Part shown: piece by piece, positions 51,977 through 60,219 of the stretch
Numbering within the stretch: position 1 is the stretch's first letter
Layout of the letters: each line of letters begins with the position of its first letter
Source of the DNA: Alistipes sp.
Lineage (GTDB): Bacteria > Bacteroidota > Bacteroidia > Bacteroidales > Rikenellaceae
Direction of reading: 5' to 3'
Length of the DNA stretch: 64,000 nucleotides
Assembly: GCA_017937125.1 (NCBI GenBank)
Contig: JAGBEH010000001.1
Location: forward strand, 806,001-870,000
The notes under the pieces: model-generated
The model's database searches: none
The model's input: the letters and a program-made list of their open reading frames with translations, nothing else
What the model was told of the DNA's origin: nothing
Program-made: the position numbers and the translations under genes

Positions 51977-53055
51977 AGGGGGGGGGAAATGGAGTCCGAA
52001 TATATATACACCCCTTCAGTATGATAAATTACGGGCTATATTATATTAAAGGCCTTTCGGATTTATTTCCTAATGCCGAGATGATATTCGATAACAAGCC
52101 ATTCGGGTACATAATCAATAATCGGGAAAAATACCGAAAAGGGATAGGTGTCGTTCTGCAAACTAATTATGAGACTATTAAAATCTATATCGATACGAAT
52201 GATCTGAACACAGTCGATTTCGATTTTTACAATTGGTCGGATGTATATGCAAAAATCAATGTAAGTGCAGATGACGGGCATTTGAAAAAGCTATTGCCTA
52301 TAGGCCCGAGTTTCGGCATAAATTACGGCTCCAAATTAAAACTAACATATTGGGGGCTGTGTAATTTTATGAGAATAAGGAATAACACGGAATATCGCGT
52401 ATCTTTTCGCGAATTTATCGGGAATTATATTTACCCATTTATTCGCAGACGCAGTTTCGAAACATACAACTGTGACTGCGACGAGGACAGAGAATATATT
52501 TTTACACTATCGACATTATGGTACGATGCTAAAACCGATATGACGACAAATAGGTTTAGAGGAATATTCGCAAAAGAGTGTAAAAAACAATTTCCAAAAT
52601 TTGAAGGCGGATTTCTATACCTGAATTCTCCGGTCGTTACCGCCCAATTTCCAGAATATACTAAATATCTAAAACTATACAGCGACATTCTGGTATCACA
52701 CAGGATGTCTATGCACGAATATCTCTCGAAAACGAGACGTTCGTCGTTTGTGTTCAATACGCCATCGGTATGCGGGTGTCTCGGATGGAAATTAGGAGAA
52801 TATTTGGCGATGGGAAAGGCCATAATATCCACACCGTTAGGCAATATAATGCCTGGAGAGTTTACAGATGGGAAACATTTCATCGCGGTAAATGATGAAT
52901 CGGAGATAGCATCGGCGATTACATTTTTGCGCAATAATCCGCAAAAAATAGATGAACTCAAAAAAAATGCACGAACATATTTCAATGAATATTTAATGCC
53001 TCGAAAAGTAATTGAACGCATTATCAATAAATACATTTCGTTAAAAGCCATCTGA
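51949..53055 (+). CDS. Glycosyltransferase (GT-B-like) with G9 tract at its start
   Basis: The frame gives 368 residues from an ATG at 51949 inside upxY. The conserved-looking protein begins VRIYIHPFSMINYGLYYIKGL. Upstream residues KGGGNG are encoded by a G9 run (51978-51986). Other possible starts are TTG at 51973 (before the run) and ATG at 52021 (after it). The C-terminal half has CGCLGWKLGEYLAMGKAIISTPLGNIMPGE and a late NARTYFNEYLMP, resembling donor-binding parts of GT-B enzymes, so a sugar-transferase role is likely but the linkage is unknown. The gene is more AT-rich than the neighbours, suggesting transfer. It ends one base before rfbA. Confidence 0.7.
   Translation: MAAITENALKGGGNGVRIYIHPFSMINYGLYYIKGLSDLFPNAEMIFDNKPFGYIINNREKYRKGIGVVLQTNYETIKIYIDTNDLNTVDFDFYNWSDVYAKINVSADDGHLKKLLPIGPSFGINYGSKLKLTYWGLCNFMRIRNNTEYRVSFREFIGNYIYPFIRRRSFETYNCDCDEDREYIFTLSTLWYDAKTDMTTNRFRGIFAKECKKQFPKFEGGFLYLNSPVVTAQFPEYTKYLKLYSDILVSHRMSMHEYLSKTRRSSFVFNTPSVCGCLGWKLGEYLAMGKAIISTPLGNIMPGEFTDGKHFIAVNDESEIASAITFLRNNPQKIDELKKNARTYFNEYLMPRKVIERIINKYISLKAI
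51978..51986 (+). repeat. G9 tract at the start of the first glycosyltransferase gene
   Basis: Nine G directly after the upxY stop (TGA at 51974-51976). It is in frame with the glycosyltransferase when read from ATG 51949 or TTG 51973. A one-base change would remove those starts from frame, leaving ATG 52021. Confidence 0.85.
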
Positions 53056-53056
53056 T

Positions 53057-58082: not shown

Positions 58083-58936
58083 TCATAGTCAGTTACAATA
58101 CCAGACTTTTACTGGCCGATTGCATCGAGTCGATTATGGAACATACCGTCGATATCGATTTCGAAATAATCGTCGTAGATAATAATTCTGCCGACGGATC
58201 GAAAGAGTATGTCAGGGGAATATATCCGAACGTGATTTGGATCGACAGCGGAAACAATATAGGCTTCGGCAGAGCCAACAATCTCGGTGCGCAATATGCG
58301 CAGGGTGAATATCTGTTATTTCTCAACTCGGATACTCTGTTGAAAAATAATGCCTTGCAATATTTTATCAAATATATGCATGTCCTCGGATCCGATAAAG
58401 TCGGGATATTGGGAAGCTGGTTGTATGACAAGGTGGGGCATATAAATTTATCATACGGCGATTTTCCTACCCCATCATCAGAAATGAAATATATATTTGG
58501 AAAAATCACGAATAGAAAAGCATCGGACGATACGACCGTCATACGTACTGTCGATTGGGTGTCGGGTGCCGATATGTTCATAAAACGCAGTCTGTTCGAA
58601 GATATGGGCGGATTCGACCCCAACATATTTATGTATTACGAAGAAACGGACCTTCAATACCGGCTGTCGGAATCCGGATACGGCAGATATATAATTCCGG
58701 GACCCGAAATCATCCATCTCGAAGGCGGCAGTTCCGACGGCAAAAAGCTGACATATCGTAAGTTTTTGATATCGCAGCACAGCTATAACTACTATATTCG
58801 CAAACACTTTCAAGGAATAAGATACGTTGCATACAGATTATTCCTTTGCTTATACAGACTGAGTATTTTCATAACTACAGATTGGAGCATGCAAGAAAAA
58901 CTAAAGGCATACGGAACGGTATTGTCAGGTAAATAA
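58064..58936 (+). CDS. Family 2 glycosyltransferase (GT-A)
   Basis: The 290-residue protein starts RQVSIIIVSYNTRLLLADCI, the classical GT2 beginning, followed by IVVDNNSADGSKEYV, GFGRANNLGAQYAQGEYLLFLNSDT with its DxD-type NSDT, and WVSGADMFIKRSLFEDMGGFDP. This pattern is close to rhamnosyltransferases of the GT2 family, which fits the rhamnose genes, but donor assignment is inference. Its stop overlaps the next start by one base. Confidence 0.9.
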   Translation: MRQVSIIIVSYNTRLLLADCIESIMEHTVDIDFEIIVVDNNSADGSKEYVRGIYPNVIWIDSGNNIGFGRANNLGAQYAQGEYLLFLNSDTLLKNNALQYFIKYMHVLGSDKVGILGSWLYDKVGHINLSYGDFPTPSSEMKYIFGKITNRKASDDTTVIRTVDWVSGADMFIKRSLFEDMGGFDPNIFMYYEETDLQYRLSESGYGRYIIPGPEIIHLEGGSSDGKKLTYRKFLISQHSYNYYIRKHFQGIRYVAYRLFLCLYRLSIFITTDWSMQEKLKAYGTVLSGK

Positions 58937-60219
58937 TGGAAAAAAGAAAGAACATTCTGGTGTTGGCATATATGGTATCGCCGTATCGCGGATCTGAATA
59001 TTCCGTTGCGTGGAACTATATCATAAATATGTCCGAATACAATAACCTGACGGTATTGTACGGCACATCCGGCAACCACCTCGGAGACAATACGGATTTG
59101 GAAGAATACCTGCGCATCAATTCCGTGCCCAATGTCGATTTCATATTCGTCAAGCCCGACAAAACGGCAATGACTCTCAACTGGCTCAATACGCACGATA
59201 TTCTTCGATATACGTTCTATCTAGCATATAATGCCTGGCATAAACAAGTATACCGTATCGCAAAACGAATAGTCGATACGCAGAATATCGACCTGATACA
59301 TTATCTCGGGCCTATCGGATACCGCGAGCCGGGTTATCTGTGGAAACTCGACAAGCCGTATATGTGGGGGCCCATAGCAGGGACATGCAACTATCCGTAC
59401 GTTCTGCGTAAATGCCTGTCGATGAAATCATTCATCAAATACCAGACAAGAAGCATCATAAACGATTTCCAACTGAAGCACTCGAAACGGCTCAAACGCG
59501 CACTATCTGCCTGCGACGTCCTGCTGACAGCGACGACCGAAGCACAAGATAAATTTATGCGCATCCATAACAGGTCGAGCGTATATTTGCCCGAGAACGG
59601 GATCGTCGCCGCAAACTCATCAGACTCGATTGCCGATAAATTCGGGGGGGGGATTATAGAACTTGTATTCATCGGACGCATAGACGGGCTCAAAAATCTC
59701 GGACTGTTATTGGCTGCCCTTACGAAAATCGACGACATAGGGAAACTGCACCTCAACATAGTAGGCGACGGAACGGAACGTGCGAAATTGGAAGCATATG
59801 CACGAATGCACGGATTAAGCGAACGACTGACTTGGCACGGACAGCAAAAACGAGAAAAGGTATTCAAAATCCTCGACAAATCGCATTTGCACGTAATAAC
59901 AAGTTTACAGGAGGGCAATGCAACGGTAGTTTTCGAAGCGATGGCGCACGGAGTTCCCACCCTCACTCTCGATCATTGCGGAATGCACGACACGATCTGC
60001 GACGACTGCGGCTTCAAAATCCCGATCGTATCTTATGAGCAAGTAGTTGCCGACATAACAGATACGCTGCAACGATGCATAGACAATCCCGACATATTGA
60101 AAACGAAAGCAGAAGAGACGGTGAAATGTGCCGAGAATTATTTATGGGACAAACGTAAACCGGTATTTCTCGAATGCTACGACGAGGCGATAAGAAAATT
60201 CGAAGAGCGGCACAAATGA
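58936..60219 (+). CDS. Glycosyltransferase family 4 protein with internal G9 tract
   Basis: The 427-residue GT-B enzyme starts MEKRKNILVLAYMVSPYRGSE. The N-terminal domain ends near residue 235 and the donor-binding domain begins with LVFIGRIDGLKNLGLL, then LNIVGDGTERAKLE and SLQEGNATVVFEAMAHGVPTL with the conserved Glu. A G9 run (59644-59652) encodes GGG at residues 237-239, in the linker just before the second domain. It is in frame here. A one-base slip would leave only the first domain and thus an inactive protein. Confidence 0.88.
   Translation: MEKRKNILVLAYMVSPYRGSEYSVAWNYIINMSEYNNLTVLYGTSGNHLGDNTDLEEYLRINSVPNVDFIFVKPDKTAMTLNWLNTHDILRYTFYLAYNAWHKQVYRIAKRIVDTQNIDLIHYLGPIGYREPGYLWKLDKPYMWGPIAGTCNYPYVLRKCLSMKSFIKYQTRSIINDFQLKHSKRLKRALSACDVLLTATTEAQDKFMRIHNRSSVYLPENGIVAANSSDSIADKFGGGIIELVFIGRIDGLKNLGLLLAALTKIDDIGKLHLNIVGDGTERAKLEAYARMHGLSERLTWHGQQKREKVFKILDKSHLHVITSLQEGNATVVFEAMAHGVPTLTLDHCGMHDTICDDCGFKIPIVSYEQVVADITDTLQRCIDNPDILKTKAEETVKCAENYLWDKRKPVFLECYDEAIRKFEERHK
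59644..59652 (+). repeat. G9 tract inside the family 4 glycosyltransferase gene
   Basis: Nine G read as GGG GGG GGG, encoding FGGGI in the inter-domain linker. It is in the on phase. Confidence 0.85.

What the first reader, a model, noticed from the sequence alone, without database searches (positions are those of the whole stretch)
51978..59652. Three glycosyltransferase genes of one locus each carry a G9 tract
Seen: runs of exactly nine G at 51978-51986, 56097-56105 and 59644-59652, all in different glycosyltransferase genes of the upxY locus. I noticed no other G or C run of this length on either strand except the C9 at 38628. Known: G-tract slippage switches glycosyltransferases in Campylobacter and Neisseria. 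In Bacteroides, capsule switching is known mainly from promoter inversion. Inference: the locus may use combinatorial on/off switching of sugar additions, a mode little described in Alistipes-type bacteria.
Basis: partly seen in the sequence, partly recalled or inferred. Interest (0 to 1): 0.85.

Follow-up and report, generated by a model that had tools for sequence, protein, structure and literature searches.

The report
Genus-wide nine-G tracts, likely gene switches
A gut-type bacterium carries dozens of runs of exactly nine G bases, three of them in its capsule-sugar genes, and the pattern repeats across its genus, which suggests that these bacteria may switch surface genes on and off by small copying slips, a method best known from pathogens such as Campylobacter.

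Summary
The three G9 runs lie in three glycosyltransferase-type genes of an upxY capsule locus; one gene is split out of frame at its tract. The genome holds 56 G/C runs of 9 or more (47 exactly 9), but 2 of 7 and 6 of 8. Over 49 genomes of the genus exact runs number G7 307, G8 419, G9 1045; over 32 genomes of other families of the order 1119, 278, 95. MutS and MutL are intact.

Twenty of 56 own tracts lie in open frames and five in the spacer of a perfect TTTG/TAnnTTTG promoter (0.12 to 0.32 expected). In a congener, 10 of 10 scanned coding tracts lie in SusC-type receptors, sensor regulators, LRR proteins, a glycosyltransferase or a DUF3575 gene. Most likely this is poly-G slipped-strand phase variation of translation and transcription.

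Unexplained: most tracts are intergenic, length is nearly locked at 9, and tracts lie on the C-rich strand (74 of 99) although shorter G runs do the opposite. No reads or sister strains were available: length variation is unproven.

The parts
51978..51986 (+). G9 tract 1, one base beyond the upxY stop codon and 29 bases downstream of the ATG of the next gene; in frame with it
51949..53055 (+). glycosyltransferase-type gene (Glyco_trans_1_2) carrying tract 1 near its start
56097..56105 (+). G9 tract 2, inside a DUF4422 gene that is out of frame across the tract in this assembly
55988..56834 (+). DUF4422 (glycosyltransferase-type) gene in pieces: 55988-56094 matches profile positions 1-28 (weakly), 56175-56834 matches 57-218; a further frame change lies downstream of the tract
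59644..59652 (+). G9 tract 3, in frame in mid gene
58936..60219 (+). GT4-type glycosyltransferase gene carrying tract 3
38628..38636 (-). fourth tract (C9 on +, G9 on -), 26 bases upstream of the ATG of the gene at 36370-38601
36370..38601 (-). DUF6562 gene downstream of the fourth tract
51308..51976 (+). UpxY family transcription antiterminator
53057..53950 (+). nucleotidyl transferase (RmlA type), no tract
53947..54519 (+). dTDP-4-dehydrorhamnose 3,5-epimerase (RmlC type), no tract
54541..56022 (+). polysaccharide flippase (Polysacc_synt), no tract
56868..58082 (+). Wzy_C (O-antigen ligase/polymerase type), no tract
58064..58936 (+). GT2 glycosyltransferase, no tract
60174..61295 (+). glycosyltransferase group 1, no tract
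61286..62365 (+). DUF1972/glycosyltransferase group 1, no tract
18303..20921 (-). MutS1 mismatch repair gene, intact (bears on mechanism)
   Evidence: G000:C4:824303-826921

Best explanation
The three capsule tracts belong to a genome-wide and genus-wide set of poly-G contingency tracts. Replication slippage changes a tract by a base. Inside a gene this shifts the reading frame and stops the protein; in a promoter it changes the distance between the -33 and -7 boxes, which in this genome is nearly always 19 or 20. Surface glycan, receptor and sensor genes are thereby switched independently, giving mixed surfaces within one population. Mismatch repair is intact, so the tracts probably sit near the length at which repair stops protecting G runs. 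Shown: excess, peak at 9, placement of a subset in frames and promoter spacers, target genes in one congener, intact MutS/MutL, one capsule gene out of frame. Inferred: that lengths vary within populations and that this changes capsule, receptors and sensors.
For: Own genome: 56 runs of 9 or more (47 G9, 8 G10, 1 G11), G8 6, G7 2. Genus (49 genomes, own included): exact G7/G8/G9 307/419/1045; one genome from each of 32 other families 1119/278/95; n9 > n7 in 43 of 49 against 1 of 32. A peak at 9 (53%) then 10 (26%) is the published profile of Campylobacter poly-G tracts (PMC6321876, passages). Promoter spacers: 5 of 56 tracts perfect, against 0.12 expected from implants near the tracts and 0.32 from implants at intergenic places only, P = 2e-5. 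In 400 kb of the same genome 25 perfect matches with spacing 15-24 end within 150 bases upstream of genes: 11 at 19, 11 at 20, one each at 15, 22 and 23, none at 18 or 21. Targets: in congener G022, 10 of 11 coding-tract genes were scanned and all 10 are SusC/TonB (3), hybrid-sensor/propeller (3), LRR-BACON (2), glycosyltransferase (1) or DUF3575 (1) (no G022 control set was scanned). A Parabacteroides faecis strain carries an in-frame G9 at another place in a homologue of own gene L018, which also has one. MutS1 and MutL intact; in meningococcus loss of MutL raised switching for G5-G8 but made no difference for G10-G13 (PMC4085013, passages).
Against: No read-level or strain-level length variation could be examined. 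Only 20 of 56 own tracts and 11 of 71 in G022 lie in open frames, against 82% in ORFs in Campylobacter. Promoter placement was not seen in G022 (0 of 71), and one of the five own cases has spacing 18, which no control promoter shows. The gene-class bias in the own genome is fragile: 15 of 49 against 1 of 20, P = 0.027, but P = 0.12 if a second control gene is counted and 0.20 if the two sulfatases are also dropped. Lengths are narrower than freely mutating tracts would suggest (70 of 71 G022 tracts examined are exactly 9). Strand polarity is not predicted by selection for switching alone. The L024 tract is absent from 29 congeneric loci. The split DUF4422 gene has a second frame change, so it may be decaying.
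Confidence: 0.68

Rival explanations
1. Length attractor without switching function: a genus-specific slippage bias expands G runs of 6-8 on one replication strand to nine and then stops; tracts accumulate wherever tolerated and a few happen to hit genes and promoters.
For: In the own genome G6-G8 are scarce and G9 frequent; 74 of 99 tracts lie on the C-rich strand while G4/G5 runs favour the G-rich strand, 1.4-1.8:1 own and 1.9-2.3:1 G022; coding sequence is avoided (20 of 56 against 86.5% coding; 11 of 71 against 82%); at the L024 tract there is one extra residue against the 16 of 29 relatives that aligned.
Against: Does not predict the promoter placement or 10 of 10 scanned coding tracts in receptor, sensor, LRR and glycan genes; at the L018 tract 42 of 67 relatives align without a length change.
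Confidence: 0.3
2. G9 is a functional polar DNA or RNA element other than a switch, for example a 3-prime UTR element or a chromosome-orientation motif.
For: Strand polarity; in G022, 46 of 59 intergenic tracts with a called upstream gene have it on the same strand (54.6% expected) and 17 of these 46 begin within 34 bases of the end of its frame (9% expected).
Against: G10 and longer contain the same word but are scarce; exact-G9 counts vary from 1 to 86 among genomes of the genus, though completeness varies too; in the own genome only 1 of 24 lies within 34 bases of a 3-prime end; known polar motifs such as KOPS and Chi are recalled to favour the other strand.
Confidence: 0.08
3. Assembly or base-calling artefact: longer runs collapsed to nine.
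For: No reads available; the extra frame change in the DUF4422 gene could be an assembly error.
Against: G9 exceeds G7 in 43 of 49 genomes of the genus, of varied contiguity, and in 1 of 32 of other families; A/T runs show no pile-up at nine.
Confidence: 0.04
4. Fixed G9 runs coding for glycines, chance survivors without consequence.
For: In-frame tracts encode two or three glycines in conserved genes.
Against: Most tracts are intergenic (36 of 56); frequencies exceed a smooth decline at 9 and fall short of it at 7.
Confidence: 0.05

Closest known systems
Poly-G/C phase variation (phasome) of Campylobacter
   Same: Dozens of G tracts per genome, length peak at 9, capsule and LOS sugar genes among the targets (PMC6321876, PMC8437040, passages)
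   Different: Bacteroidales host; mostly intergenic tracts; SusC-type receptors and sensor regulators among the targets; replication-strand polarity; length variation not yet shown
Promoter-spacer phase variation of Neisseria and Bordetella (porA, opc, fim; recalled)
   Same: Homopolymer between the two core promoter boxes
   Different: Bacteroidota -33 TTTG / -7 TAnnTTTG promoter with a 19-20 base spacer
Invertible-promoter capsule switching of Bacteroides fragilis
   Same: Same kind of locus (upxY) and the same predicted outcome, mixed capsules (PMC12632263, passages)
   Different: No strong inverted-repeat pair found upstream of upxY; the variable element would be a G tract inside individual genes
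Slippage suggested for one Bacteroides fragilis polysaccharide locus (PMC3090145, passages)
   Same: Earlier suggestion that slipped-strand mispairing could vary a Bacteroides polysaccharide, from a frameshift in an acetyltransferase-related gene
   Different: A run of four C in one gene, not a genome-wide set of G9 tracts

Membership tests
Poly-G/C slipped-strand phase variation | Excess of long G/C tracts over chance | tested here: met
Poly-G/C slipped-strand phase variation | Length spectrum peaking at 9-10 | tested here: met
   comparison from PMC6321876 passages
Poly-G/C slipped-strand phase variation | Tract placed so that a one-base change alters frame or promoter | tested here: met
   for a subset: 20 of 56 own tracts in an open frame (19 G9; 1 G10 that is out of frame with the downstream gene) and 5 of 56 in promoter spacers. 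The open-frame count is partly circular, since a split gene is scored as intergenic; window tracts 1 and 2 were scored so
Poly-G/C slipped-strand phase variation | Targets biased to surface and glycan genes | tested here: inconclusive
   own genome 15 of 49 against 1 of 20, P = 0.027, but 0.12-0.20 under stricter labels; G022 10 of 10 scanned of 11, without its own control
Poly-G/C slipped-strand phase variation | Tracts mostly inside ORFs | tested here: not met
   20 of 56 and 11 of 71; typical of Campylobacter rather than defining of the mechanism
Poly-G/C slipped-strand phase variation | Length varies between cells or clones | not testable with these tools
   no reads or sister strains; three viral contigs flank scans gave 0
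Poly-G/C slipped-strand phase variation | Expression switches with length | not testable with these tools
   needs experiment
Invertible-promoter capsule switching | Inverted repeats around a promoter upstream of upxY | tested here: inconclusive
   in 50300-51400 the longest arms are 21 nt at 76%, 20 nt at 75% and 19 nt at 84%, plus a perfect 12-nt hairpin-like pair
Replication-polar chromosome motif (KOPS/Chi type, recalled) | Over-representation of the word irrespective of longer runs, steady copy number | tested here: not met
   longer runs scarce and counts 1 to 86 among genomes of the genus

The most novel reading that the evidence does not exclude
This genus has an unusual, replication-polarised slippage regime in which G runs of 6-8 on one strand are driven to exactly nine and held there, creating a standing supply of length-locked G9 tracts; selection then recruits some into promoter spacers, surface genes and glycan sensors as switches whose default state is set by the nine-base length, while others settle just behind stop codons.
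Probability: 0.3. Interest if true: 0.85.

Novelty: new variant of a known kind. Interest (0 to 1): 0.7.

Why it matters
Phase variation in gut Bacteroidales is described mainly as DNA inversion; a 2025 review of the group has no word beginning slipp- or homopolym- in its main text (PMC12632263), although slippage was once suggested for a B. fragilis polysaccharide gene (PMC3090145, passages). A genus-wide poly-G phasome would mean that inversion-based surveys of gut bacteria miss a second switching layer over capsules, nutrient receptors and sensors, and would make phage escape and strain tracking testable by tract-length counts. The near-lock at nine and the strand polarity would make the origin of contingency tracts testable.

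Tried and rejected
Mismatch-repair loss as the cause: rejected, MutS1 and MutL are intact. Fixed-length insertion of nine G: not supported, since 42 of 67 relatives align to the L018 tract without a gap, although L024 shows one extra residue against the 16 of 29 relatives that aligned (13 rows failed because the longest open stretch of the locus was not the gene). Gene orientation as the cause of strand polarity: not supported, coding bases on G-rich against C-rich strand are 185:145 kb (own) and 152:164 kb (G022). Leading or lagging identity: unresolved, no DnaA-box cluster in the stretches scanned; I therefore speak of the C-rich strand. Promoter placement as a rule for the genus: not seen in G022. 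Close strains in viral contigs: 0 matches in three scans. Literature: in the listings of searches (25 of 80 listed; 15 of 17; 10 of 25) and 94 no title or abstract start reports poly-G phase variation in Alistipes or relatives; the library is open-access only and I saw listings and passages, not whole papers. The genus could not be named: the closest named relatives of one protein are labelled Alistipes (60-63%) and Tidjanibacter (61%). Gene-orientation figures used unreliable ORFs and were replaced. On checking, the own-genome gene-class bias proved fragile, so I lowered the main confidence from 0.70 to 0.68.
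Full report
What is in the window. Runs of length 5 number 39, length 6 one, lengths 7 and 8 none, length 9 four; a dinucleotide model expects 0.17 runs of nine or more (P for four or more = 3e-5). The locus begins with a UpxY antiterminator and continues with RmlA- and RmlC-type genes, flippase, Wzy-type and glycosyltransferase genes. Tract 1 lies one base beyond the upxY stop, at the start of the next gene and in frame with it; tract 3 is in frame in mid gene; tract 2 lies in a DUF4422 gene whose pieces, searched apart, match profile positions 1-28 (E = 5e-4, below the family cut-off) and 57-218, and which has a further frame change downstream. 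In this assembly that gene is off or decaying.

It is genome-wide. The own genome (2.16 Mb, 12 contigs) has 66 G9 positions, which are 56 runs: 47 of nine, eight of ten, one of eleven. Exact runs of seven number 2 and of eight 6. In 400 kb of stretches chosen to avoid tracts, G/C runs of length 4 to 8 number 1250, 196, 8, 0, 1, so G9 is not the tail of a smooth distribution.

It is genus-wide. Exact counts over 49 genomes of the genus, own included, are G7 307, G8 419, G9 1045; over one genome from each of 32 other families of the order 1119, 278, 95 (tallied). G9 outnumbers G7 in 43 of 49 and in 1 of 32. In congener G022, 86 of 88 runs are exactly nine; in G038, 34 of 40. A/T runs show no such peak. 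Campylobacter poly-G tracts peak at nine (53%) and ten (26%) (PMC6321876, passages), so the spectrum resembles that of known contingency tracts. The trait is not wholly confined to the genus: among 67 named Bacteroidota loci fetched for one capsule-type gene, 8 (two of them identical) hold a G run of 9 or 11, one a G8 and one a G7. The genus is unnamed here; the closest named relatives of that protein are labelled Alistipes and Tidjanibacter.

Placement in the own genome. Twenty of 56 tracts lie in open frames and 36 do not, against 86.5% coding sequence. The coding set is 19 G9 tracts, in frame by construction, and one G10 that is out of frame with its downstream gene. The count is partly circular, since a split gene, and also window tract 1, is scored as intergenic. 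Known or suspected split genes include the window's DUF4422 gene and those at the first L035 tract and the second L039 tract. Five tracts occupy the spacer of a perfect TTTG...TAnnTTTG promoter against 0.12 expected from implants near the tracts and 0.32 per 36 from implants at intergenic places only (90 of 10000; P = 2e-5). The consensus is recalled, but bears it out in this genome: of 25 perfect matches (spacing 15-24) ending within 150 bases upstream of genes, 11 have spacing 19 and 11 spacing 20, none 18 or 21. Four of the five tract promoters have spacing 19 and one 18; the last would be off register in this assembly, or not a promoter. A one-base slip would thus move such a promoter within or out of the allowed range.

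Gene classes. In G022, 10 of the 11 coding-tract genes were scanned: three TonB/SusC, three hybrid two-component or propeller proteins, two LRR-BACON proteins, one Glycos_transf_4, one DUF3575; no control genes of G022 were scanned. In the own genome 15 of 49 tract-linked proteins are TonB/SusC receptors, adhesin-type or glycan proteins (two of them sulfatase-family, function inferred) against 1 of 20 control genes, P = 0.027. This is fragile: counting a second control gene gives P = 0.12, and dropping the sulfatases as well gives 0.20. Which neighbour a tract was linked to was my choice, the labels were not blind, and DUF6562 and DUF3575-only genes were not counted.

Origin of tracts. In L024 (sulfatase family) the tract adds one residue to a conserved stretch against the 16 of 29 relatives that aligned, and none of the 29 congeneric loci has the tract. 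In L018 (Polysacc_synt_2) 42 of 67 relatives align across the tract without a gap. A homologue of L018 in Parabacteroides faecis has an in-frame G9 at a different place, an apparent independent gain. The third capsule glycosyltransferase has a relative at E <= 1e-50 in only 1 of 100 other congeners, so conservation of its tract cannot be tested.

Mechanism. MutS1 (in the window, 18303-20921) and MutL are intact. In meningococcus, loss of MutL raised switching nearly a thousandfold for G5-G8 but made no difference for G10-G13 (PMC4085013, passages). A repair-proficient cell could therefore hold short runs still while tracts of about nine or more escape. This is inference.

What does not fit. 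Tracts lie on the C-rich strand in 35 of 44 cases (own) and 39 of 55 (G022), pooled P = 9e-7, while G4 and G5 runs favour the G-rich strand. Only contigs with a fetched tract-free stretch were counted (44 of 56 own and 55 of 88 G022 tracts); the idea came from looking at the orientations, and neighbouring tracts are not independent. With finer skew for one G022 contig its count rises from 10 to 12 of 15. On own contig C4 all 13 stretches sampled from 20 to 805 kb have positive skew and the one at 870 kb is negative, the window between being mixed; of the tracts, 16 of 20 up to 845 kb have G on the minus strand and 5 of 5 beyond have it on the plus strand (counted). In G022, 46 of 59 intergenic tracts with a called upstream gene have that gene on the same strand, 17 of them within 34 bases of its end. 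In the own genome the same counts are 24 of 35 and 1 of 24. I have no tested explanation; the biased-slippage model is my most novel reading.

Limits. G022 results rest on 71 of its 88 tracts. Gene calls are my own codon-usage calls with ATG starts, not an annotation. No length polymorphism was seen because none could be looked for. Prior art was searched in an open-access library, by listings and passages.

Noticed in passing
L018 (C4:549400-556000): One Polysacc_synt_2 gene has two tracts, a G10 about 250 bases upstream and a G9 inside; L039 likewise has a promoter-spacer G9 and, about 110 bases on, a G10 near the start of the same SusC-type gene.
   Followed up: partly
L096:2819-2827: Parabacteroides faecis JCM 18682 has an in-frame G9 in a homologue of the own L018 gene, at a different position.
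   Followed up: partly
G022 tract loci L145-L204: Many tracts of this congener begin a few bases after a stop codon on the sense strand.
   Followed up: partly
G056 (another family of the order): The only one of 32 outgroup genomes with more exact G9 (10) than G7 (4).
   Followed up: no
own genome stretches L225-L244: A/T runs fall off towards nine (56 of length 7, 14 of length 8, 2 of length 9 in 400 kb).
   Followed up: no
window 40000-64000: AT skew is positive in all six 4-kb blocks from 40 kb on, after three negative blocks at 28-40 kb, near the place where the strand skew of contig C4 changes.
   Followed up: partly
L086 and L087: Two contigs of one MAG hold identical 6923-base stretches with a G11.
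   Followed up: no
window 38716-39519 and 36370-38601: Two adjacent DUF6562 genes on the minus strand; the second has the fourth tract just before its start.
   Followed up: partly
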